A stretch of DNA of 64,000 nucleotides from Acidobacteriota bacterium (GTDB lineage: Bacteria; Acidobacteriota; Terriglobia; UBA7540), in contig SCRD01000001.1 of the NCBI GenBank assembly GCA_004298155.1, forward strand, positions 124,001-188,000, read 5' to 3'. Positions 31,028 to 41,502 of this stretch are shown in pieces. Position numbers and translations under genes: made by a program. The notes under the pieces were generated by a model. It saw only the letters and a program-made list of their open reading frames with translations, was not told the DNA's origin and did no database searches. Every line of letters starts with the position of its first letter. Position 1 is the stretch's first letter.

Positions 31028-31528
31028 TCACGCAGAAGGCTTAGTGGATAAAGAAGTCGATTGGTCTTTGAAACCTGATGTCTCCAGGCGCTTGTGTTCG
31101 GCAGGGTCGCTTTGCTGGTTCAAGCGCGTCCGAACCAGGTTCGCCAGCGTCTGAGTTTCAAGAAAATGCATGAGCTGATTTCTCAATTCAACCCACGAAT
31201 CGTGCAATGCACACTGTCCATGAACGGAACATTGGCCTTCCTCCAGGATGCACTCGGTGAGTGTCATCTCCCCCTCGATACATTGCACGATCATCAGGAG
31301 ATTGATCTTATCGGGCGGCAGCGCCAGCTCGTAACCGCCGCCAATTCCTTTGTAAGAGCGGAGCATCCGCTTGCGTCGCAGATCGAGCAAAATCTTGCAT
31401 AAGAAGGAACTGGGAATATCCTCCTGCTCAGATATCTCGCGGCTGCCGCAAAGCTTTCCTGGAGGTTGCATCGCCAGATAGCTCAATGCCCGGATTGCGT
31501 AAGCCGATGACTTGGATAGCATCAGCAT
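31028..31528 (-). CDS. Rrf2-family regulator, NsrR/IscR-like
   Basis: 166 residues. Winged helix at the N-terminus (LSKSSAYAIRALSYLAMQ, then FLCKILLDLRRKRMLRSYKG-GGGYELA as the recognition helix and wing). Three cysteines, C-X6-C-X5-C (CILEEGQCSVHGQC), lie where NsrR and IscR bind an Fe-S cluster; X6/X5 spacing occurs in some NsrR proteins, which lose repression when NO destroys the cluster. The gene sits 98 bases upstream of the narC-like gene on the same strand, so it may control nar, itself or the divergent PAS-LuxR gene. The start is either of two ATGs two codons apart. Confidence 0.85.
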   Translation of the reverse strand: MLMLSKSSAYAIRALSYLAMQPPGKLCGSREISEQEDIPSSFLCKILLDLRRKRMLRSYKGIGGGYELALPPDKINLLMIVQCIEGEMTLTECILEEGQCSVHGQCALHDSWVELRNQLMHFLETQTLANLVRTRLNQQSDPAEHKRLETSGFKDQSTSLSTKPSA

Positions 31529-31538
31529 TGACTCAATC

Positions 31539-31558
31539 AAAGGACTTTCTTATCCTTT
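31539..31558. promoter_or_regulatory. inverted repeat in the rrf2 / PAS-LuxR divergent gap
   Basis: AAAGGA and TCCTTT flank an 8-base spacer directly upstream of the Rrf2-family gene. It could be an autoregulatory operator. A related AAAGGAT sequence occurs upstream of the narC-like gene around 30998-31004 when read leftward. Short and AT-rich, so chance is possible. Confidence 0.25.
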
Positions 31559-31641
31559 AGTCATGTATTTTCCACTTCTGCTCAAGTCCAGCAATCGTCC
31601 GTTTATCCCGGTTTCTGGTACATTTGTCACGGAGGCATAGA

Positions 31642-32295
31642 GTGCTCGAAAGAGAGTTGTTTGCCATTCTGGAGGGCACGGCTGACGGGGCTTTTGCCGT
31701 CGATGAGCATGGCCTCGTGAGATCGTGGAACCGCGCGGCAGAGAAGCTCTTTGGATATAAGCAATCAGAGGTCTTGGACAAACCGTGTGCAGACCTTTTC
31801 CAAGGCAAAGGAAGTTTGGGTAACCAAGTTTGCGTGGAGCCCTGCAGCGTAATTGAGTGTGCAATCAATCATCGTGAGGTTTCCAACTACGACATGGAGG
31901 TGCAGACCCGGTCTGGGAAAGGAATCTGGGTCAACGTTTCTATTCTCGCCTTTCACGATCAGCGGACGCATCGCCATCTGGTGGTCCACCTCACTCGCGA
32001 CGTCACGGCGCGGAAGAAGTCCGAAAAGCTCTCTCAGAAGTTGATGAACGTGGCCAGGGAAATTTCCGCGCTTCCCGATGACTCGGAAGGCCTGCCTCCG
32101 GTTTCACCGCTCACTGAACAGGAACGACGGGTTCTTGAGTTGCTAGCGAAAGGGAAAAGCCCATCTCAGGTCGCACGGGAGCTCGGAATTACTCCCCGAA
32201 CTTTACGCAACCACCTCCATCACGCCAACCAGAAGCTTCACACCCGCAACCGACTGGAAGCAGTAATGCAGGCGGCGCGGCGCGGGCTGATCTGA
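31642..32295 (+). CDS. PAS-LuxR one-component regulator with four-cysteine PAS domain
   Basis: 217 residues from GTG 31642 (CGGAGG lies 6 bases upstream; an earlier TTG is in frame). One PAS domain (about 5-120: FAILEGTADGAFAVDEHG, WNRAAEKLFGY) carries C49, C64, C68 and C73, spaced C-X14-C-X3-C-X4-C. A short linker leads to a GerE/LuxR DNA-binding domain: LTEQERRVLELLAKGKSPSQ, ELGITPRTLRNHLHHANQKL. There is no receiver or kinase domain, so sensing and DNA binding are in one protein. The clustered cysteines suggest a metal or Fe-S redox sensor (inference). Divergent from the Rrf2 gene and adjacent to nar, so nar control is likely. Confidence 0.85.
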   Translation: MLERELFAILEGTADGAFAVDEHGLVRSWNRAAEKLFGYKQSEVLDKPCADLFQGKGSLGNQVCVEPCSVIECAINHREVSNYDMEVQTRSGKGIWVNVSILAFHDQRTHRHLVVHLTRDVTARKKSEKLSQKLMNVAREISALPDDSEGLPPVSPLTEQERRVLELLAKGKSPSQVARELGITPRTLRNHLHHANQKLHTRNRLEAVMQAARRGLI

Positions 32296-32335: not shown

Positions 32336-34066
32336 TCAGTATTCAATTATCGTCAGCACCTGATCGATACGCGGATTTTCAATCACCTGGCTCTTGCTGC
32401 CGAGCCACTGCACCTCCACCTTTTCCACACGATCGATCTGGCCCAGCCCGAACCACGCTTCCGGAGCGGACTGTGAAAGGTAGGAACCTGCTGCTCCGTA
32501 TTCACGAAACTGCCGCTTGCCTCCAGCATCGAGATAGACCTTTGCGCCGTAGCCGGAACGGTTTGTCCGCCTGCCTGCCAGGTGAACCGACAGCCAGTGG
32601 TTGCGGTTGCCACCGTCGTTTCGCAACAAAATGGGCCGGCCGTAATTCGTCATTACAATCACGTCCAAGTCGCCGTCACGGTCGTAATCAGCGAACGCAG
32701 CCCCGCGACCCACAATCGGCTGCTTGAGAGCGCTGCCTGCGGCTCCCGAGCGAGCCAGATCGTAGTAGCCGTTCTGCCCCTTGGACCAAAAGAGAAAAGG
32801 CTGGCCCGGAATCAGCTTGGCCGTGTCGCCCTTGTCCTCGATCGTGGAGCCGTTGACGGCCATCAGATCCAGTTGTCCGTCGTTGTCGAAATCGAAAAAG
32901 AATGCGCTCCAGCCGGCATCCCCCATGGCGATCTCACCGCAGCCGAAGATGTCCGCAGCATCGGAAAAATGCAGTTTGTCTTTCCTTTGCTGTTCCTGCC
33001 AGAGATTTTGATAGAGCGCGTAACCCTGGCCTATCCAGTGAGTCAGGAACATGTCTATGTCGCCGTCGCCGTCGAAATCTCCCAGCGCGATTCCCATCGT
33101 CCCGCGGTTCTCCTCGGTCCATGACGAGGCGCTGATATCCTGGAAGTGGCCGTGTCCCAGGTTCTGATACATGCGATTGGATGAGATATCATTCCCAATG
33201 TAAAAATCCATCCAGCCATCCAGGTTGAAATCGCCAAAGGCCGCGGCGAGGCTCCTACCGTCAGAATTCGCGATGCCCAGCCGCGCTGCAACATCGGTAA
33301 ACGTTCCATCGCGGTTATTGTGGTAGAGGCGGTTTGGAACCGGGTCAAACGAAGAAGGGTTTAGGGTAAAGGGAACGTTGGTACCGTATTCCTGGGATGT
33401 GGCGCCGGAAGGAACGCCACGAAGGTCGTAATTCACATAATTGGTAACGTAAAGGTCGAGGTAGCCATCGTTGTCATAATCGACCCAGACCGGTGTCATG
33501 CCCCATCTGTGATTGCCCACGCCCGCACGGTCCGTCAAGTCCGTAAAGGTGCCGTTGCCATTGTTGTGGTAGAGGACTGACCGCCCGTAGTTGGTTACGT
33601 AAAGGTCGAGGTGGCCATCGTTGTCATAGTCACCCCAGGCAGCCCCCATTCCGTAACCGCCCAGGTTGCCCACGCCTGCCTGGGTCGTCACATCGGTAAA
33701 GGTACCGTCACGGTTGTTGCGGTAGAGATGGCTGTAGGGCGCATCGGCGCCAGGCTTTGTTCCCCAAGGGCCAGGTTGATTTACCAGGTAGAGATCCGGC
33801 CATCCGTCGTTGTCGTAATCGCCCCATGCCACGCCGGGCCCCATATCCTCAGGAAGCTGGTGCGTCCGAGCGCCCTTCGAGTGGATAAAATCGATTCCAG
33901 CCTGCCGGGTGACATCAGTAAAACTAATTGCGGGATGGTCCGAAGGCAGATTCCGCGCCGCGCTATCAAACACCTGCGGTTTGCGGTTTGAATTAGACCG
34001 CGAGCATGCCGTCGCAAACCCTGTAAGAGCTCCGACGCCTGAAAGCAGTATTTCCCGGCGCGTCAT
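32336..34066 (-). CDS. CRTAC1-family FG-GAP/VCBS repeat protein with ASPIC/UnbV domain
   Basis: 576 residues. A short export signal MTRREILLSGVGALTGFATAC ends in a possible lipobox cysteine (residue 21). Several FG-GAP/VCBS calcium-binding blades follow, each with a D-Y-D-N-D-G type loop (WGDYDNDGWPDLYLVNQ, WVDYDNDGYLDLYVTNY, LGDFDGDGDIDMFLTHW). The C-terminal ASPIC/UnbV domain (about 500-570) reads GYGAKVYLDAGGKRQFRE and FGLGQIDRVEKVEVQW. It is an extracytoplasmic beta-propeller of unknown activity. Its ATG overlaps the stop of the upstream multiheme cytochrome gene by 4 bases, so the two proteins are made together. Confidence 0.88.
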   Translation of the reverse strand: MTRREILLSGVGALTGFATACSRSNSNRKPQVFDSAARNLPSDHPAISFTDVTRQAGIDFIHSKGARTHQLPEDMGPGVAWGDYDNDGWPDLYLVNQPGPWGTKPGADAPYSHLYRNNRDGTFTDVTTQAGVGNLGGYGMGAAWGDYDNDGHLDLYVTNYGRSVLYHNNGNGTFTDLTDRAGVGNHRWGMTPVWVDYDNDGYLDLYVTNYVNYDLRGVPSGATSQEYGTNVPFTLNPSSFDPVPNRLYHNNRDGTFTDVAARLGIANSDGRSLAAAFGDFNLDGWMDFYIGNDISSNRMYQNLGHGHFQDISASSWTEENRGTMGIALGDFDGDGDIDMFLTHWIGQGYALYQNLWQEQQRKDKLHFSDAADIFGCGEIAMGDAGWSAFFFDFDNDGQLDLMAVNGSTIEDKGDTAKLIPGQPFLFWSKGQNGYYDLARSGAAGSALKQPIVGRGAAFADYDRDGDLDVIVMTNYGRPILLRNDGGNRNHWLSVHLAGRRTNRSGYGAKVYLDAGGKRQFREYGAAGSYLSQSAPEAWFGLGQIDRVEKVEVQWLGSKSQVIENPRIDQVLTIIEY

Positions 34067-36183
34067 CGGCCTGGCCTCGGCTCTGGCATCGCCGCAAGCG
34101 AGGTCGCTTTGCGCTGTTTGATTGAAGACACCGCCTGAACCTGTTCATGGCCGGAGAGAGGCACTTGAACGCGGTCTGAAGAGAGATCTGTGACCGGCGT
34201 GTGAAGATGCTTGCCCGGATAAGCGAAATCCATGAAATACTGGTTCGCCTTGCGGTAGCGCAGCCGTGCCGTGATGGTCAGCGGGCCTTTGGCGTTGCGA
34301 GGTACGGTGAACTTATACTCGTACATGTCCGAATAGCCTGGGAAGATCGCTCTCTTCCACTTGGCGCCTACATAGTGCCAAAGGTCGTGTCGCACGATCT
34401 CCTGACCTTCAGCATTGACCCCTTCGGCTTTCAAGACGAACGTACCCGGCTCCAGATGGCCGTCCGGCAGCAGTGCTCCAGAGTGGAAAATGTCGCGCCC
34501 ACTCTGGTCGCTGACCTTCACCTCCACCCATGCGCGGATCAGATCCAGCGGGCCGGAGGGAAAGCTGTGTCCGGCTTTGTTGTTCGAAATCACTGTACGA
34601 AATGCTGCCTTCTCGCCCGGCCTGACCGGCAGGGGAGGAACAATTCTGACAGGCAGCACGGGACCCTTTGGCCATACATTGGCGATTTCCGGAATGTATT
34701 TTTCTCCGCGCAGCCAGTGGACTACACGCTCGGTTTGTTCCTGGGCGTCGGGTGCATCGATTACTGCCGGCATCCACTGGTTGCCGGCGGCAAACCAATG
34801 GTTGCGGTGTTTGAGCTCCAGGCCTGTCTTCAGGTCATAGGGATCGGCCAGCGCCCGGTTGGGCGCACTCTCATAATACATGTGGCATTGTTGGCAGCGC
34901 AGACGATGCTCGGGATTCGGGTCCGTATTCCATTTTCCGTGTTTCCAGTCATCGTACTGGTTCTGGAGTTGCACCCAACCGACGTGGTTGATCTCTTTAT
35001 CGATGAACTGTTTATGGCAGGCGCCACAGGAAGCGGTGTCTTTGGCCAGCGTCAGGTCGTAGTCCGCGTCGTGTTGGCGTGGAAAAGCGCGAATCAGGAA
35101 ATGTGTGATGGCGGATGTTCGCCCTGCGCCGGCGTATTCAAACAGGTAGGGTTTTGCCGGCGCCCAGACGTAATTTCCGTTTCCCTGAACATCCACGCGC
35201 CGCATCGCATGGCAGATCACGCAAGACGCGCCCTCCTTGAACCCCGGGGCTTCAATGCTGGTACTGGCATTCTTATAGCCCGAAAGCAGTGAAACAGGAT
35301 CATGGCATCCCGCGCAATAGCGCGCCGATGGAGCGCCCTCTGCATGGATCAGCGCCGTCTGTACGGCCTGGAAGGCCTGGTCTTCCGACGACCAGCGATG
35401 AGTATTGGCGTTCCACTCCTTGTAGATCTGCGTGTGGCAGCCCGAAGCGCCGCACGATTTCGACCCGGCCAGCAGCTGCGGCGCCACCGGCCCGCCGCTC
35501 ACTGTCTTTGCCATACTGGGAGCAAAGATGCCTTTGCCGTAAGGCATCTTATAATCTGCCGGCAGCCTGTAATTGCTGAAATCCGGCGCGTAGGCTTCGT
35601 ACGCCGCCGCCAGGACACCCACCACAGCGAGCAAACCAAAAACGGTGAACCCGCAAGAGCGCCACATGCGGCGTCGCGCCGGGCTGAAATCCGGTAGCAC
35701 AAACCTGCCATTCAGTCCGTTCTCATCGTTGTGGTTCATCGCCTTTTTGGCACGCGGCCAGACGTGATATGCGATAAACGGCACGGCTGCAATCCCGCTC
35801 CACAAATGTACCTGGTCCCAAAAGCCCCTGATAAAGAGCCCGAACATCGCCTGCCAGGTAAGAACGAGTCCCGAGGCTAACACCACCGACATCGTCCAGA
35901 ACCCCGTGTAGGCACAAATCTTCCGGAACGACCGGCGGGTCTTACGCGTGGCCAGCCAGTGGCTCAGTTGCCACAACGTGATTGGAATCACAACCACGAG
36001 GCCCAGCACCGTATGAATAAGTACCGAGACTTGAATCGGCACACTGAAGGGTAGCAGCCACATCGCGAGTCCCGTCAGTGCAAGAAAAATCAATACTCCG
36101 CTGAGCAGGCTGAAACGAAAGATTCCTCTTTCGTGAACAAACGTATGCCGGATGGGTAACGGGCCATAAGCAGATTGTTCCAT
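34063..36183 (-). CDS. membrane b-type cytochrome domain fused to pentaheme c-type cytochrome
   Basis: 706 residues. About five membrane helices (near 22-44, 53-75, 92-118, 122-143, 176-197) include histidines in pairs (H57, H75, H126, H140), the layout of a quinol-oxidising b-type cytochrome. The exported part has one unusual CX4CH (244-250, CGASGCH) and four CXXCH sites (290-294, 321-325, 386-390, 430-434), then a beta-rich C-terminal domain (about 500-680). This would carry electrons from the quinone pool to periplasmic c hemes in one chain. The terminal acceptor or donor is unknown. It lies between the nar and NO-response genes and is translationally coupled to the CRTAC1-type gene. Confidence 0.87.
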   Translation of the reverse strand: MEQSAYGPLPIRHTFVHERGIFRFSLLSGVLIFLALTGLAMWLLPFSVPIQVSVLIHTVLGLVVVIPITLWQLSHWLATRKTRRSFRKICAYTGFWTMSVVLASGLVLTWQAMFGLFIRGFWDQVHLWSGIAAVPFIAYHVWPRAKKAMNHNDENGLNGRFVLPDFSPARRRMWRSCGFTVFGLLAVVGVLAAAYEAYAPDFSNYRLPADYKMPYGKGIFAPSMAKTVSGGPVAPQLLAGSKSCGASGCHTQIYKEWNANTHRWSSEDQAFQAVQTALIHAEGAPSARYCAGCHDPVSLLSGYKNASTSIEAPGFKEGASCVICHAMRRVDVQGNGNYVWAPAKPYLFEYAGAGRTSAITHFLIRAFPRQHDADYDLTLAKDTASCGACHKQFIDKEINHVGWVQLQNQYDDWKHGKWNTDPNPEHRLRCQQCHMYYESAPNRALADPYDLKTGLELKHRNHWFAAGNQWMPAVIDAPDAQEQTERVVHWLRGEKYIPEIANVWPKGPVLPVRIVPPLPVRPGEKAAFRTVISNNKAGHSFPSGPLDLIRAWVEVKVSDQSGRDIFHSGALLPDGHLEPGTFVLKAEGVNAEGQEIVRHDLWHYVGAKWKRAIFPGYSDMYEYKFTVPRNAKGPLTITARLRYRKANQYFMDFAYPGKHLHTPVTDLSSDRVQVPLSGHEQVQAVSSIKQRKATSLAAMPEPRPGR

Positions 36184-36409: not shown

Positions 36410-36736
36410 TCAGAACTTCCGTGCCGCATCATCCACTAGCAGATTACTTAGCCGCTTGCGGAGCGCCTCCAGTTGTTTGGATATGAAGGCTCGATGCGTT
36501 TCTTCTATCGCTTAGATTGCATCCATGACCGCAACCCGATATTTCTCGCGTGGACCGCAATTGACCAGAGGGCAATAGTCTATGCTCTGTCCGTTAGCAC
36601 GCCTCTCACCAACAACCTTCAGGAGGACTTCGCGCTGTTGTTCAATTCTCTCCGTTAACTGGTCGGCGATCTCGCTCACGTACTCACAAAGATTAACTTC
36701 TTCAGGCCTGATTGCGGCCTCTATGAGTTCAAAACC
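36410..36736 (-). pseudogene. small cysteine-containing protein gene interrupted by an in-frame stop
   Basis: Leftward, a clean frame reads IADQLTERIEQQREVLLKVV, then SIDYCPLVNCGPREKYRVAV and MDAI, then TAA (36512-36514). It continues without frame change as AIEETHRAFISKQLEALRKR and ends at 36410. Coding character on both sides of the stop, with helical heptad-like content, argues for a real gene broken by one nonsense change. A start is also unclear (GTG at 36679 or further up). A palindrome like the nnrS/ric operators lies about 80 bases upstream. Function unknown; the family is remembered from similar genomes but not named. Confidence 0.5.
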
Positions 36737-36814
36737 TTATAGGCGACACCCTTTAAGGTCAATCCTCGCAACCAACTACCTATTGGTTTTTAATATATGA
36801 GGTCCCGTAAGGCT

Positions 36815-36828
36815 ATGACTTTGGTCAT
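36815..36828. promoter_or_regulatory. Dnr/NnrR-like palindrome ATGAC-N4-GTCAT
   Basis: Perfect 5+5 palindrome with a 4-base spacer. It is part of an 18-base block (GGCTATGAC...) that matches, on the opposite strand, the site at 40656-40673. Fnr/Crp-superfamily NO regulators (Dnr, NnrR) recognise TTGAC/TTGAT-type half sites with this spacing (established). It could serve the leftward broken gene or act as a distal site for nnrS. Confidence 0.6.
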
Positions 36829-36872
36829 GAATTGCAAGAGGTATCTCTCCAGGAAATGCTGTCACTCACCGT

Positions 36873-36886
36873 GTGACAAAAGTCAT
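36873..36886. promoter_or_regulatory. Dnr/NnrR-like palindrome upstream of nnrS (class II position)
   Basis: GTGAC-AAAA-GTCAT, core TGAC-N4-GTCA. A TATCCT hexamer at 36910-36915 predicts a start near 36922, placing the centre of the palindrome about 41.5-42 bases upstream, the normal class II activating position for Fnr-type proteins. This also argues that translation starts at 36972 rather than at the far upstream in-frame codon lying inside the site. Confidence 0.65.
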
Positions 36887-36971
36887 CGTCTTAAGCGCGG
36901 GGTCCGCCCTATCCTTTACCACTGGCGGCGTAATCGAAATTCACAATCGTGAGAACAAACAGAGGTTGAGC

Positions 36972-38522
36972 ATGAAAACCATTACAGGATCCACCAGCAT
37001 CGTTGAGATCTTGAAAATATGCCCCTCTGCACGGCGAATTTTCGATCAGCATGGCCTCCACGGTTGCGGCGGTGCGAACGGGCCGGCGGAGCCTCTGGAG
37101 TTTTTTGCCTCGGTGCATGAGGCCGATCTCGAGGCTCTCCTGCGCGACCTGAATGCAGAGATGAAGGACCCTCAGAAGGAGCCATCCGGTTACCAGGAAT
37201 CGCTGGGCGATTATATTTACCGGCGCTTTTTTAAGGCAGGCATTGTGATTATGCTGAGCCTTGGAGGTTTGTGGGGAGTTATCGCGCTGCTGGAAATCTC
37301 ATTCCGTAAGGAACTGCTTCAACCTCAATTGCTGCCGTTTATTCATGCGCACGGCCACGCCATGATTTTCGGGTGGGTGGGTCTGTTTGTGATGGGCTTT
37401 GCGTACCAGTCGTTTCCACGTTTCAAGGTGACAACGTTGTGGAGACCGCATCTGGCGAATCTTACGTTGTATCTGATGCTGTTCGGCATATTGACCCGCG
37501 CTGTTGGTGATCTGCTCCCGCACGGCGCGCTGGCGCTGGTGTTCGGAGCGATTTCCGTAGTTGTCGAGGTAGCCGCTATCGTGCTGTTCATTCTGATTAT
37601 CTTCAAGACGGCGTCACAGTCCATCTCTCCCCGCAGCCCCTATGAGCGCTTGATCATGGCTTCGCTCACTTGGTTTCTGATTCAGGCCGTTTTCAGCGGC
37701 ATTTTCTTCTTTGCGGAATCCACTGCGACAACGCCCGACCAATCTATCTTTCGCATCGCGCTGCTCGACGGCCCCCTGCGCGATATGCAATTGTTCGGCT
37801 TTGCCGCGCTGATTATCGCCGGCGTGAGCCAACGATTTGTTCCCGTGGTGTACGGACTCGGAAAGGCAAAGCATGACTTTCAGCGGCTGATTTTCTGGCT
37901 GATCAACGGCAGCCTGGTGCTCGATGTTATCAGCTATATGGCCCTATTCCTTACTGGAAATCCCATTGCGGGCGTCTGCCTCGAAATTTCATACCTTTTG
38001 ATGCCACTCTGGGCTGTATTGCTGGTGCTTCAGCTCGGCGTTTTCAGGCGTCCCTCTATATCCGACCGTAGCTGGAAATTTATTCGCGCAGCCTATGTGT
38101 GGCTGTTAATTGCAATGGGAATGGTGCCGCTGCTGGTTCCGTACAGCAGTTGGATGGGCGAAGCGTTCTCACATGCCTTCTGGGGTGCACAACGGCATGC
38201 TTTCACGGTGGGCTTCGTCAGCATGATGATTCTGGCCGTCTCCTCGCGCGTTGTCCCAATCCTTGCCGGCGTGGACTCGAAGCGGCTCCCGTCGCTTTGG
38301 GCCCCATTTATCCTGCTGAACACAGGATGCGCCGGGCGTGTGAGCCTCCAGGTGCTGACGGATTTTGCCCCGCATTTCGCTTATTCCCTGATCGGCATTA
38401 CCGGCATCATGGAACTTACCGCAATTACATGGTGGGGTGTTGGATTGTGGCAGGTGATGAATCTTGCGAAAACCCATCGGGCCAGCCTCTTTAATGTGCC
38501 AGCGCCTCTCGGAGTTCGCTGA
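36972..38522 (+). CDS. nnrS: NnrS-family membrane protein with N-terminal DUF1858/ScdA_N-like domain
   Basis: 516 residues. Residues 1-60 form a small helical domain (STSIVEILKICPSARRIFDQ, HGLHGCGG) like the DUF1858/ScdA_N module seen at the start of Ric. After a linker come about 12 membrane helices of NnrS type: FIHAHGHAMIFGWVGLFVMG, AGVSQRFVPVVYGLG, FWGAQRHAFTVGFVSMMIL and SSRVVPILAG, with conserved histidines. NnrS is a heme- and copper-containing membrane protein that relieves NO stress (established for Rhodobacter and Vibrio). AGAGG lies 6 bases before the ATG. The Dnr-like site upstream implies NO control. Confidence 0.87.
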   Translation: MKTITGSTSIVEILKICPSARRIFDQHGLHGCGGANGPAEPLEFFASVHEADLEALLRDLNAEMKDPQKEPSGYQESLGDYIYRRFFKAGIVIMLSLGGLWGVIALLEISFRKELLQPQLLPFIHAHGHAMIFGWVGLFVMGFAYQSFPRFKVTTLWRPHLANLTLYLMLFGILTRAVGDLLPHGALALVFGAISVVVEVAAIVLFILIIFKTASQSISPRSPYERLIMASLTWFLIQAVFSGIFFFAESTATTPDQSIFRIALLDGPLRDMQLFGFAALIIAGVSQRFVPVVYGLGKAKHDFQRLIFWLINGSLVLDVISYMALFLTGNPIAGVCLEISYLLMPLWAVLLVLQLGVFRRPSISDRSWKFIRAAYVWLLIAMGMVPLLVPYSSWMGEAFSHAFWGAQRHAFTVGFVSMMILAVSSRVVPILAGVDSKRLPSLWAPFILLNTGCAGRVSLQVLTDFAPHFAYSLIGITGIMELTAITWWGVGLWQVMNLAKTHRASLFNVPAPLGVR

Positions 38523-38541
38523 CACCAATTCCTTCATGAAT

Positions 38542-38949
38542 TTATGATGGTCGAGTCAGGAATAACACTGCGATAACTCCCAAGGCGGTCAGCACCAGCG
38601 CCTCTACAGAATCGAATACGATAATGATTTGGTTCAAGGACGGTGATGTTGTAAATGCAGGTTTCTTTTTCCTGCCGGCCGTGAGCTCGCCTGCGGCCCA
38701 GATCCCCAGGTGAATCAAAGCAAAGAGGACCACTACAACCTTCCACCCCAAGGCGTGCCATAGAGGCCAGGCGGCGAGAGCCAGAAGCCAGTACATGCCC
38801 TCGATCCGCAGCGCCCGCTGCGGTGGGAGCCGCCGGCTGATCCACGAAGTCGGATGCTGGTTCCATGCTCTGAGAATCTTCGAAGTTCCCACGTGGATCA
38901 GGAGCATCACCGGTGTGTAAACAACGATAAGAAGCCCAAGTATTTTCAT
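38542..38949 (-). CDS. small membrane protein of unknown function
   Basis: 135 residues with four likely membrane helices (about 3-21, 52-68, 70-87, 112-132) and a basic loop with AGRKKKPAFTT. It lies between the two nnrS genes, convergent with the first and in the same direction as the second (58 bases downstream of it), so it is probably co-transcribed with the second. No family recognised. A role in the NO response is inferred from position only. Confidence 0.7.
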   Translation of the reverse strand: MKILGLLIVVYTPVMLLIHVGTSKILRAWNQHPTSWISRRLPPQRALRIEGMYWLLALAAWPLWHALGWKVVVVLFALIHLGIWAAGELTAGRKKKPAFTTSPSLNQIIIVFDSVEALVLTALGVIAVLFLTRPS

Positions 38950-39007
38950 GGAAGATCAGCCTTGAAAACTAGAAATCGTGAAGCCACAAAGGACTGCTGT
39001 TCTGCTG

Positions 39008-40582
39008 TCATTGGTTCCTGCCCACCCTTCGAGGCTGCCGTTCGTTGAAGAAAGCATTCAGCTGGACCACGAGATGGTCCAGGTCTGCGTGGTCGGCCGC
39101 GGCCGCCTCGGCAAGGCTCAAGGATCGCGGAGCCTTTCGCGTTTTTGAAAGCGTCTTTAATCCGGCCTGGATCAATACCGTTCTCGTTTTCGGAAAGCTC
39201 GTGAGATACCAGTATAAGGGCAACTGGGCGCTGATGCCTTGTGCCGAGAACCAGGCTGGGAGCGGCTGCGTCATCGTTGCGGCCATATTGATAACGAAGG
39301 CGAGGACGCCCGCGAATTCAAGATACGCTGAGATTGGCAGCAGGTTCCAGGCGTTTCCGCCAAAAGAATAGGCGACGGCCTCGCTGGATACTCTCAAAAA
39401 GCAACCTGTACTCAAAAGCCAAAGACTGGCTGCCATCCATCGCGTGCTAAAGAGTTCACGGCCATTGAGAAACGATGGGAGCATTCGAGGGCCGATCGAG
39501 AGAATTAAAACGCCGATAAAGCCCACCGTAACGGCATGACGGGAGGCTCCAACGAGGCCTGTGGCGCGAGGCATCAGGTCAGCGGCGACGCCCAATATTG
39601 CTCCAACGATAAGCCAGGCATAAGCGAGACGAATAAAAGCAGGGTAATGCCGGTACGCTCCAACCAGCTTTGCGGGGCGCGCCGGCTTTTGAAAAACGCG
39701 CAAAGCCCAAACCGCATAAATGGCAAGAGCCAGGACGAGCAGGTCGGCCAAAAGGTACCGGCGTGCCAGGGCCAACACCAGAAGAGCGACAATACCCATG
39801 CCGAATTGCCTGGCCGCCTGGTGATGCGGAGGCTGAAGACCGAGGAAAATCGTAACAAATCTCGTGCTGAACCCCCATGCCGTCACCACCACGAATCCCC
39901 ATATCATAAGTATCAGAAAAGTGTTGTCCCACTCCGGCGGAAACAAGGGCAACCGGCCAACAAGAGCCAGCCAAACGGAAAGCCCCAGATTCAGCAGAAG
40001 TGCCACGCCTAGGGATGAAAACCCCCAAATGCCAAGCCATGACCCCAGGTCATCGGGTTTTTTCTTAGCCGACCCGCCAAGAATCAGGATCTTCTGGGTC
40101 AGTACATACGCAGCGAATTCCAGAATCGCGGAGGCAGGCAGGCCGAATCTCCACGCTGTCTGCTCAATGCCAATCCACCACCGGAGGGCTACACCCGTGG
40201 TCCACAATGCCCAGATCGTCCAAACCAATGAAAAAGACCTCAATGGCCGCCCGCGGAATTTCGGCAGAATGTAGAGTGAAATACCGAGGATAAAACTGCC
40301 CACCCATCCGAATAACTGGGCGTGGCCATGCGCCTGAATCCAGGCGGCACTGGCAGCAGTGTGAGATCGATGGACTGAGATTTGAACTAAATTCCAAACG
40401 CCCAGAAAAGTACCCGGAAGAGCAAGGAAGAAAGTTCCTGACAAGATAAAGGCGGCAAGAGCTCTGGCAGCCCTTCTTTCCCATGCAGGATCAGCGTAAT
40501 CTACCTTGCCCTGAGCGTCGCGTTCGTAGGCGCGCACCCACTGTTCCGGCAAGCCGGCCTTTTCAAGGTCGTTCATGCTCAT
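39008..40582 (-). CDS. NnrS-family membrane protein (second copy)
   Basis: 524 residues with about 12 membrane helices. NnrS-type sequence: WIQAHGHAQLFGWVGSFILG (helix with conserved His), AWGFSTRFVTIFLGLQPP, GASRHAVTVGFIGVLILSIG and PRMLPSFLNG. It has no DUF1858-type domain, but a hydrophilic N-terminus (about 1-35) and a soluble C-terminal extension (about 460-524). The ATG at 40582 has GGGGAA 6 bases upstream. Divergent from ric; a palindrome at 40656-40669 between them could serve both directions. Confidence 0.82.
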   Translation of the reverse strand: MSMNDLEKAGLPEQWVRAYERDAQGKVDYADPAWERRAARALAAFILSGTFFLALPGTFLGVWNLVQISVHRSHTAASAAWIQAHGHAQLFGWVGSFILGISLYILPKFRGRPLRSFSLVWTIWALWTTGVALRWWIGIEQTAWRFGLPASAILEFAAYVLTQKILILGGSAKKKPDDLGSWLGIWGFSSLGVALLLNLGLSVWLALVGRLPLFPPEWDNTFLILMIWGFVVVTAWGFSTRFVTIFLGLQPPHHQAARQFGMGIVALLVLALARRYLLADLLVLALAIYAVWALRVFQKPARPAKLVGAYRHYPAFIRLAYAWLIVGAILGVAADLMPRATGLVGASRHAVTVGFIGVLILSIGPRMLPSFLNGRELFSTRWMAASLWLLSTGCFLRVSSEAVAYSFGGNAWNLLPISAYLEFAGVLAFVINMAATMTQPLPAWFSAQGISAQLPLYWYLTSFPKTRTVLIQAGLKTLSKTRKAPRSLSLAEAAAADHADLDHLVVQLNAFFNERQPRRVGRNQ

Positions 40583-40655
40583 CAAACATTCCCCTTTAAG
40601 ATGTCCGCATATGGAACAAGTATAACCATTTAATCGAAAGTGCCACTATGTTTCC

Positions 40656-40669
40656 GTGACTTTTGTCAT
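40656..40669. promoter_or_regulatory. Dnr/NnrR-like palindrome in the nnrS2 / ric divergent promoter
   Basis: GTGAC-TTTT-GTCAT. For ric, TAATAA at 40695-40700 predicts a start near 40705, 41-42 bases from the palindrome centre (class II). Leftward, TATACT (reverse strand of 40619-40624) predicts a start near 40612 for nnrS2, about 50 bases from the centre. Its flank (reverse strand GGCTATGAC) is the same as at 36811-36819. Confidence 0.62.
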
Positions 40670-40776
40670 AGCCTTGTCCCCGAGCTATACCGTGTAATAA
40701 ACGTAGTGAGCGGGGATCTGTGGGGCTGGGTGGTACTCAGCAATCGTTCACGTGAAAGGCCGATGAAGGAGGATTG

Positions 40777-41502
40777 ATGGCTATCGATACTCAAAGGACC
40801 GTTGCGGAAATAGCACTTGAGAAGCCGCAAGCTGCAGCGGTGTTTGAAAAATTAGGAATTGATTACTGTTGTGGTGGGGGCAAGCCTTTAGCGGTTGCGT
40901 GCGAGGAGGCAGGCATTGATGTGAACGCCGTGGAAGGGCTGCTTGATGAAAAAGGCAAAGATGGACCTGGAGGCGAGAATTGGAGCGAGCGATCTCTTGC
41001 CAGTCTCGTCACTCACATCGTGGAAAAGCATCACGCCTATTGCCGCGAGGAATCCCATCGGTTGCAGCCGTTATTGGCAAAGGTGATTTCAAAGCATGTC
41101 GAGCGCCATCCGGAACTCTCTCGAATCGAGGAACTGTTCACTTCGCTGCGTAACGAGCTCAGCATGCACATGATGAAAGAAGAGCAGATGCTGTTTCCCT
41201 ACATTGTTCGTTTGGAGGAAGCTGCAAGCCAGAAGGCTCCTGCTCCGCGCGCACCTTTTGGTACAGTTCAAAATCCGGTGCGCATGATGCTCGCGGAACA
41301 CGATGACGCTGGCCACCTGGTCAAAGAGATCCGCGACTTAAGCGGGAGTTTCACGGCGCCCGAAGACGCCTGCACCAGTTTCAGGACGCTCTACCAGAGT
41401 CTGGAAGCATTCGAGGCGGACTTGCATCTGCACATTCATTTGGAGAACAATCTGCTCTTCCCAAAGGCGATCGATCTGGAAAACGCGGCACAAACGGAAT
41501 GA
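40777..41502 (+). CDS. ric: iron-sulfur cluster repair di-iron protein (Ric/ScdA/YtfE)
   Basis: 241 residues. The ScdA_N domain (1-60) reads TVAEIALEKPQAAAVFEKLG and IDYCCGGGKPL. The hemerythrin-like domain follows, with histidine/glutamate ligands in LVTHIVEKHHAYCREESHRL, LSMHMMKEEQMLFPYI, MLAEHDDAGHLVKEI and LHLHIHLENNLLFP. The protein repairs Fe-S clusters damaged by NO or oxidants and can react with NO. ATG 40777 has AAGGAGG 4 bases upstream. A Dnr-like site in its promoter joins it to the nnrS genes as an NO-response unit. Confidence 0.94.
   Translation: MAIDTQRTVAEIALEKPQAAAVFEKLGIDYCCGGGKPLAVACEEAGIDVNAVEGLLDEKGKDGPGGENWSERSLASLVTHIVEKHHAYCREESHRLQPLLAKVISKHVERHPELSRIEELFTSLRNELSMHMMKEEQMLFPYIVRLEEAASQKAPAPRAPFGTVQNPVRMMLAEHDDAGHLVKEIRDLSGSFTAPEDACTSFRTLYQSLEAFEADLHLHIHLENNLLFPKAIDLENAAQTE

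What the first reader, a model, noticed from the sequence alone, without database searches (positions are those of the whole stretch)
36815..40669. Three matching TGAC-N4-GTCA palindromes define an NO-response regulon
Sites at 36815-36828, 36873-36886 and 40656-40669 share one core and spacing. Two lie about 41.5 bases upstream of the start sites predicted from TATCCT (nnrS) and TAATAA (ric), the class II position of Fnr/Dnr/NnrR-type activators. The first and third also share the flank GGCTATGAC in opposite directions. The regulated genes are two nnrS genes and ric, all NO-linked. No such site was seen before the nar operon, so the two systems seem separately controlled.
Basis: partly seen in the sequence, partly recalled or inferred. 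Interest (0 to 1): 0.7.

Follow-up and report, generated by a model that had tools for sequence, protein, structure and literature searches.

The report
Nitric-oxide response regulon in Acidobacteria
Three short palindromes in a soil bacterium's DNA look like the landing sites of a switch protein that sits in front of genes for coping with nitric oxide, and the same arrangement recurs in many relatives among the Acidobacteria, a major soil group.

Summary
In detail: three TGAC-N4-GTCA palindromes lie where stated. The 12-base core alone is not rare in this genome (72 places against 51 for the reversed control); the A/T-centred 14-mer is (12 places against a control of 1 match per strand). The sites look like real operators. 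Upstream of ric the exact core occurs in 25 of 32 Acidobacteriota loci and 1 of 32 other loci; all 20 nnrS1 loci examined have a site. A -10 hexamer recurs 23-24 bases past the core, so the class II position (about -41.5) is supported comparatively. The likely regulator is a Crp/Fnr protein (TFD, outside the window, G000:C18), whose RELVSR-type helix fits GTGAC half-sites and whose gene adjoins ric in 16 of 32 loci. Targets are NO- or nitrogen-oxide-linked: ric, both nnrS, a radical SAM gene, a second nar operon, probably qNor; in relatives also nirK, hcp, hemerythrin. Corrections: site 1 appears to face left, away from nnrS1; nitrate reduction is not wholly separate. Binding by TFD, activation, and NO as signal are inferred. 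In kind it matches HcpR, DNR and NnrR regulons; this clade and motif variant were not found described for Acidobacteriota.

The parts
36815..36828 (-). Operator site 1 (ATGACTTTGGTCAT); conserved flank and -10 face left
36787..36792 (-). Candidate -10 (TAAAAA) for a leftward promoter, 23 bases from the core of site 1
   Evidence: score 3.7, equal to the 99% background quantile
36419..36697 (-). Small ORF, 48% identical over 93 residues to an intact 102-aa protein of G084 that also has a site upstream; in-frame stop at 36512-36514 here
34063..36183 (-). DUF4405 / multihaem cytochrome gene downstream of site 1; possible leftward target, homologue in the same place in G084
36873..36886 (+). Operator site 2 (GTGACAAAAGTCAT), upstream of nnrS1
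36910..36915 (+). -10 (TATCCT) of nnrS1, 24 bases from the core
36972..38522 (+). nnrS1: DUF1858-like part (below the Pfam cut-off) fused to NnrS
38542..38949 (-). 135-aa protein without family match, next to nnrS2 also in relatives
39008..40582 (-). nnrS2
40656..40669 (.). Operator site 3 (GTGACTTTTGTCAT), placed to serve both ric (+) and nnrS2 (-)
40628..40633 (-). Candidate -10 (TTAAAT) of nnrS2, 23 bases from the core
40693..40698 (+). -10 (TGTAAT) of ric, 24 bases from the core
40777..41502 (+). ric: iron-sulfur cluster repair di-iron protein (ScdA_N + hemerythrin)

Best explanation
The palindromes are operators of a Crp/Fnr-type dimeric regulator, most likely TFD (234 aa, G000:C18, locus L089:10527-11231, outside the window). 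It binds RTGAC-N4-GTCAY centred near -41.5 and activates sigma-70-type promoters of nnrS1, nnrS2 and ric, a leftward promoter at site 1, and elsewhere in this genome a TIGR04053 radical SAM gene, the neighbouring Crp/Fnr gene TFC, a cytochrome c-narGHJ operon and probably qNor. Shown by comparison: conservation of the sites, their spacing to a -10, linkage of TFD genes to the targets, and agreement of TFD's recognition helix with the motif. Inferred: that TFD is the protein that binds, that it activates rather than represses, and that the signal is NO or a related nitrogen oxide.
For: Footprint: exact core within 350 bp upstream of ric in 25 of 32 Acidobacteriota loci against 1 of 32 others, that one overlapping the start codon; matrix sites (>=12 bits) in 28 of 32 against 0 of 32 others and against 6 in the other 325,645 bp of the Acidobacteriota loci (matrix trained on ric sites). 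nnrS1: 20 of 20 loci that hold its start. qNor: 12 of 30 loci within about 400 bp. Promoter: in 22 of 28 ric promoters no other offset of 38 scores higher than 23/24; 0 of 20,000 offset permutations reached the mean; score >=1.5 at 23 or 24 in 19 of 20 nnrS1 promoters. Regulator: a TFD-type gene lies within 556 bp of ric in 16 of 32 loci, 15 of them upstream on the same strand; tree clade of 33 rows, support 99/99. TFD relatives at E<=1e-35 in 25 of 27 genomes whose ric has an exact or one-base-off core and in 0 of 4 without a site >=12 bits; one more genome has TFD and a degenerate site (Fisher p 0.002, not corrected for relatedness). Helix GTVRELVSR: Arg180/Glu181 predict a GTGA half-site by the rule of PMC1274295 (passages).
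Against: No binding, expression or NO data. Four other intact Crp/Fnr genes were found in this genome; TFA, TFB and TFC also carry RE in the helix. In this genome TFD is not next to nnrS or ric. Two genomes with a ric site show no TFD at E<=1e-20 (L034, L040; in L040 the contig starts 68 bp before ric). nirK has a close site in only 2 of 8 loci over the cut-off, a third having one about 640 bp before the match. 18 of 30 qNor loci lack a site within 400 bp; the own qNor site is imperfect (14.8 bits) with a weak -10 (2.0). 8 of 23 nnrS2 rows have no site in the locus. TFD's nearest solved relatives by sequence are cAMP-type CRPs, not NO sensors. Some strong matches in this genome (C13, 18.0 bits; C28:137117, 19.7 bits) have no fitting target.
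Confidence: 0.82

Rival explanations
1. Same operators and regulator, but the signal is low oxygen or redox state rather than NO; NO-linked genes are switched on as part of a move to nitrate respiration.
For: The second nar operon and an ACIII-like respiratory cluster (C25) have sites; Fnr-type proteins with the same architecture sense oxygen (established knowledge).
Against: The most regularly marked genes are NO-linked (ric, nnrS1; also nnrS2, qNor, hemerythrin). The aligned TFD-type proteins show no Fnr-like N-terminal cysteine quartet (by eye).
Confidence: 0.28
2. Another Crp/Fnr protein of this genome (TFC, beside TFD, or TFA, TFB or TFE) is the one that binds.
For: TFA, TFB and TFC have RETVTR, RETISR and RETVSR helices, which also predict GTGA half-sites; TFC lies next to TFD with a site between them whose -10 faces TFC.
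Against: In the 32 Acidobacteriota ric loci no ORF had TFA, TFB or TFC as its best match (E<=1e-8); TFD was best in 19 loci (16 adjoining ric), TFE in 2 (L040, L049). Among the loci examined TFC was seen only in this genome and G154.
Confidence: 0.1
3. The sites belong to an Rrf2/NsrR-type repressor, such as the Rrf2 gene at 31028-31540 in front of the window's nar genes.
For: NsrR controls dnrN (ric) and nnrS in proteobacteria (PMC1274295, passages); an Rrf2 gene is in the window.
Against: Rrf2 homologues (E<=1e-5) are in 13 of 32 non-Acidobacteriota ric loci and 0 of 32 Acidobacteriota ones, the reverse of the motif's distribution; the published NsrR motif gATGyAT-N5-ATrCATc differs; a site at fixed distance upstream of the -10 fits an activator.
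Confidence: 0.04
4. Chance palindromes, or repeats of a mobile element.
For: The 12-base core alone is only mildly enriched. In relatives at least 4 hits are GCATGACTTTAGTCATGC repeats, two of them around an IS200-like transposase gene.
Against: The window's sites lack those GC arms, keep a fixed distance to -10s and recur with orthologous genes.
Confidence: 0.02

Closest known systems
HcpR regulons (Crp/Fnr; delta-proteobacteria, cyanobacteria, Clostridia and others)
   Same: Crp/Fnr protein, nitrosative-stress genes, inner half-site GAC-N4-GTC (published consensus TTGACnnnnGTCAA in part of the delta-proteobacteria and in cyanobacteria, PMC1274295, passages); in G103 hcp has a site and a TFD-type gene about 0.7 kb away.
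   Different: Here the half-site is GTGAC/ATGAC with an A/T centre, the helix has Arg at position 180, ric and nnrS are the regular targets, and hcp is nearly absent (2 of 151 genomes). TFD scores 42 bits to solved HcpR (9day_A) against 99 for M. tuberculosis CRP.
DNR regulons (beta- and gamma-proteobacteria)
   Same: NO-responsive Crp/Fnr activator of nir and nor genes, in places of nnrS, from Fnr-like sites; TFD model against DNR 3dkw_A: TMq 0.62, rmsd 5.4.
   Different: DNR consensus CTTGATnnnnATCAAG (PMC1274295, passages); TFD is not specifically close to DNR by sequence (62.7 bits).
NnrR regulons (alpha-proteobacteria)
   Same: Crp/Fnr control of nnrS, nir and nor (PMC1274295, passages).
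   Different: Consensus ctTTGcgnnnncgCAAag, a different half-site.
M. tuberculosis CRP, GlxR, E. coli CRP
   Same: Best sequence hits of TFD; RE helix and GTGA half-site; same fold.
   Different: The Arg of M. tuberculosis CRP's GPRTS stretch (recalled as the cAMP-phosphate Arg) aligns with Tyr in TFD, inside a Tyr-Pro-Ala that is invariant in the 11 aligned TFD proteins, so cAMP binding is unlikely.

Membership tests
Crp/Fnr superfamily (TFD) | cNMP-binding-like domain plus Crp-type HTH | tested here: met
   PF00027 79.6 bits, PF13545 58.8 bits; model of the L030 relative pLDDT 87.4, pTM 0.64, full-length matches to Crp/Fnr structures
Crp/Fnr class II promoter | site centred near -41.5 with a sigma-70 -10 | tested here: met
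   -10 at 23-24 bases in ric and nnrS1 sets; transcript starts not mapped
HcpR | published HcpR motif (TTGACnnnnGTCAA, TGTGAn6TCACA or GTAACnnnnGTTAC) | tested here: not met
   consensus here RTGACTTWRGTCAY, no T before TGAC in any of 32 sites; inner GAC-N4-GTC shared; the flank TGTGA is not required here
HcpR | hcp as core target | tested here: not met
   hcp in 2 of 151 class genomes; own genome none
HcpR | orthology to HcpR | tested here: inconclusive
   42 bits to one solved HcpR, TMq 0.67 to the same; no reference tree built
HcpR | haem-dependent NO sensing | not testable with these tools
   no biochemistry
DNR | TTGAT-N4-ATCAA site | tested here: not met
   TTGA-N6-TCAA not found within 350 bp upstream of ric in any of the 32 Acidobacteriota loci (68 bp available in L040)
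DNR | orthology to DNR | tested here: inconclusive
   62.7 bits to 3dkw, similar to other Crp/Fnr proteins; no reference tree built
NnrR | TTGCG-N4-CGCAA-type site | tested here: not met
   consensus
NnrR | orthology to NnrR | not tested
   no NnrR sequence was compared
NsrR (Rrf2) | Rrf2 gene linked to targets | tested here: not met
   0 of 32 Acidobacteriota ric loci; in the window an Rrf2 gene lies about 9 kb from ric
cAMP-CRP | cAMP-phosphate Arg in the binding pocket | tested here: not met
   Tyr in its place in TFD, Tyr-Pro-Ala invariant in 11 of 11; the role of the Arg is recalled

The most novel reading that the evidence does not exclude
Acidobacteriota, above all Terriglobia, use a dedicated, lineage-specific NO sensor, the TFD clade, in place of NsrR, DNR or NnrR. 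It has its own half-site (GTGAC, Arg180 type) and a sensor domain that has lost the cAMP-phosphate Arg but keeps two near-invariant cysteines (Cys52, Cys121), which may take part in sensing. It links NO defence, qNor, nirK, nar and an uncharacterised TIGR04053 radical SAM enzyme, which would then be an NO-response enzyme, in one regulon.
Probability: 0.45. Interest if true: 0.62.

Novelty: new variant of a known kind. Interest (0 to 1): 0.5.

Why it matters
Acidobacteria are abundant in soils (PMC5900883, abstract start), and qNor reads and transcripts from them were reported at relatively high abundance in two soils (PMC8692524, passages). How they control NO-handling and N2O-forming genes was not found in print with searches (listings and abstract starts only, apart from the papers named). 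The result gives a candidate regulator, a motif, transcript-start predictions and a target list that can be tested directly, and it ties two gene families of unclear role (NnrS, TIGR04053 radical SAM) to one predicted switch.

Tried and rejected
Core motif alone as a genome-wide predictor: rejected, 72 against 51 control.

Sites as mobile-element repeats: rejected for the window, though such repeats exist in relatives.

Rrf2/NsrR as binder: rejected.

Own-genome matches without a fitting target: C6, C7 and C13 lie inside ORFs (C13 despite 18.0 bits), C12 at the start of one, and C28:137117 (19.7 bits) has no convincing target. The ACIII-like cluster site (C25, 23.2 bits) has only a weak -10 (2.1) and the HPF/cold-shock-like gene site (C17, 14.1 bits) has none facing the gene; both are left as possible.

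Fold search pdb_via is dominated by cyclic-nucleotide domains of channels and kinases and gave no sensor assignment; HcpR 9day_B is at Z 18.7 and the DNR sensor domain 2z69_B at Z 17.9, the whole DNR chain is not among the rows shown.

Papers: some searches failed on a disallowed character; one found none; one found three papers: the 2005 study, an E. coli paper not opened, and a P. aeruginosa katA Anr box (passages). PMC8510549 was seen in passages (0 occurrences of 'acidobacteri').

Full report
Observation. The three palindromes are exact and are the only TGACNNNNGTCA in the window. By count alone the core is weak evidence: 3 of 100 shuffles of the window reach three sites, and the genome has 72 places against 51 for the reversed pattern. 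The A/T-centred 14-mer RTGACWWNNGTCAY has 12 places (16 strand matches) against 2 strand matches of the control. So what carries weight is the position relative to genes and its conservation.

Genes. 36972-38522 is an NnrS protein with a DUF1858-like N-terminal part; 39008-40582 is a second NnrS; 40777-41502 is RIC/YtfE-type.

Footprint. A scan of genome contigs with Ric gave 64 loci; by record title 32 are Acidobacteriota and 32 are from other groups (the split is mine). The exact core lies within 350 bp upstream of ric in 25 of the 32 and in 1 of the other 32, where it overlaps the start codon (L040, L048, L070 and L075 have less than 350 bp). A matrix from 31 of 32 sites (29 from ric loci, 3 from the window; one cut by a contig end left out) gives consensus RTGACTTWRGTCAY plus a one-sided flank. 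With it 28 of 32 Acidobacteriota ric upstreams pass 12 bits, 0 of 32 others, and 6 hits fall in the remaining 325,645 bp of the Acidobacteriota loci. This is circular for ric, not for the gene sets below. In the genome's family (39 genomes) nnrS1 was found in 19, with 21 matches; the 20 loci holding its start (own included; the 3'-end piece L214 dropped) all have a site >=12 bits within 700 bp, and 14 have a second site >=10 bits upstream. For nnrS2, 15 of 23 rows have a site in the locus; in two of these it lies before ric, and two are pieces of one gene. For qNor, 12 of 30 loci (of 43 listed matches in 40 of 151 genomes) have a site within about 400 bp. For nirK, 8 of 151 genomes pass the cut-off and 2 of these 8 have a close site; L112 is the same gene as L063. 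hcp occurs in 2 of 151 genomes, one with a site. In 41 relatives RTGACTTWRGTCAY has 54 strand-counted matches against 7 for the control (sums are mine; perfect palindromes count twice); 16 of the 41 have none, and some matches are repeats of a mobile element or lie in coding sequence.

Promoter architecture. In 28 ric promoters (27 loci plus the window) the mean -10 score peaks 23-24 bases after the core: no other offset scores higher in 22 of 28, and none of 20,000 permutations matches the mean. With a usual -10-to-start distance this puts the site centre near -41.5 or -42.5. In the nnrS1 set the proximal site has such a -10 (>=1.5) facing nnrS1 in 19 of 20; among loci with two sites the mean for the distal site peaks at 23 in the opposite direction. 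The divergent gene in relatives is often a hemerythrin (PF01814 tested for L199; the others by eye) or a homologue of the TIGR04053 radical SAM protein. In the own genome 24 sites were tested, out of at least 73 places. At or above the 99% background quantile (3.7) are nnrS1, ric, nnrS2 (reverse), site 1 (leftward), the radical SAM gene, the cytochrome c-narGHJ operon on C28 (5.2 facing it, 3.7 the other way) and TFC; the other 18 of 24 sites did not reach it (L098 was dropped because its site was off centre).

Site 1. Its flank and -10 face left. There a small ORF with an internal stop (36419-36697) matches an intact 102-aa protein in G084, which also has a site upstream and is likewise followed by a homologue (40%) of the multihaem cytochrome gene 34063-36183. 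Site 1 may therefore drive the leftward cytochrome genes. Whether that transcript reaches narG is open: an Rrf2 gene (31028-31540, minus strand) and a PAS-LuxR gene (plus strand) lie before the cytochrome c-narGHJ genes, and the gap has no site better than 5.7 bits.

Regulator. Nine hits to the Crp HTH family in the own genome include five intact Crp/Fnr genes. TFD (L089:10527-11231) is the one whose relatives adjoin ric: in 15 of 32 loci upstream on the same strand at 88-556 bp, in one convergent at 51 bp, often as TFD-[site]-ric-nnrS2. TFD-type genes also lie next to nnrS1, nnrS2, the radical SAM gene and ric-qNor, and near hcp. In the tree (52 rows; proteins under 180 aa left out) the main clade of 33 rows has support 99/99 and holds own TFD twice; L051, L186 and L187 form a more distant group, and L160, L191 and TFE fall outside it. 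The helix is GTVRE(L/I)(V/I)SR in the main-clade rows; L275 is cut before it. By the published rule Arg180 goes with G at the third site position (PMC1274295, passages), as seen here (G in 29 of 32 left half-sites, A in 3; on the right C in 19, T in 13). TFD in genomes: 25 with site and TFD, 2 site only, 1 TFD only (its ric has a degenerate site), 4 neither. The cut was E<=1e-35, set by hand; L049, L052 and L072 genomes have weaker hits of 27-31% identity, and L032, L038 and L051 count as TFD at 38-42%. The structure prediction (first row L030; 11 sequences, pLDDT 87.4, pTM 0.64) gives a Crp/Fnr fold; among Foldseek's 50 rows the highest TMq are to HcpR 9day_B (0.67) and DNR 3dkw_A (0.62), but ranks by E-value favour GlxR and M. 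tuberculosis CRP, and the difference may only reflect domain orientation.

Sensor. The Arg of M. tuberculosis CRP's GPRTS stretch aligns with Tyr in TFD, in a Tyr-Pro-Ala invariant in 11 of 11. Cys52 and Cys121 are nearly invariant and absent in the divergent L051 protein. What TFD senses is not shown; NO is inferred from the targets.

Other phyla. Rrf2 homologues occur in 13 of 32 non-Acidobacteriota ric loci and in none of the 32 Acidobacteriota ones, which suggests that the regulator of ric differs between lineages.

Literature. No paper on this regulon in Acidobacteriota was found with the searches named (31, 32, 36, 65, 66, 70, 71; listings and abstract starts only, except passages of PMC1274295, PMC8510549, PMC4974557, PMC8692524 and PMC5900883); the library lacks most subscription papers. 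PMC5900883 (passages) notes norBC and norZ homologues in Acidobacteria, including strains without dissimilatory nitrate or nitrite reductases, and a suggested detoxification role.

Noticed in passing
31028-31540 (-) and 31624-32295 (+): An Rrf2 (NsrR/IscR-like) regulator with three closely spaced cysteines directly before the cytochrome c-narGHJ genes, and a PAS-LuxR regulator on the opposite strand: perhaps the window's own nar control.
   Followed up: partly
36419-36697 (-): Small gene disrupted by an in-frame stop, between site 1 and a multihaem cytochrome gene; a homologue is intact in G084.
   Followed up: yes
L089:10527-13338 (G000:C18): Two divergent Crp/Fnr genes (TFD, TFC) with a weak site between them, then a TIGR04053 radical SAM gene with its own strong site; the TFD-TFC-radical SAM order is kept in G154 (L164).
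   Followed up: yes
L239:4064-18284 (G000:C28): Second nar operon (about 62% identical narG and narH) behind a c-type cytochrome-like gene (one CXXCH by eye, no Pfam match) and a site, and a second ric (51%) nearby without its own site.
   Followed up: partly
L241:870-6748 (G000:C25:150871): Strong site about 275 bp before an alternative-complex-III-like cluster (multihaem cytochrome, molybdopterin protein, NrfD, ActD).
   Followed up: partly
L155, L159, L135 (G020, G015): GCATGACTTTAGTCATGC palindromes, two flanking an IS200-like Y1 transposase gene in L155: mobile repeats that mimic the operator.
   Followed up: partly
L271 (G000:C16): Own qNor gene with an imperfect site (TTGTGACAAAAATCATAA, 14.8 bits) and a second radical SAM/SPASM gene next to it.
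   Followed up: partly
L049 (Vicinamibacterales): ric next to a different, TFE-like Crp/Fnr gene and without the motif: perhaps another regulator-site pair.
   Followed up: no
L242:8007-9630 (G092:C120): nnrS2 of a same-genus genome has an in-frame stop and is read as two pieces, though its upstream site scores 24.3 bits.
   Followed up: no
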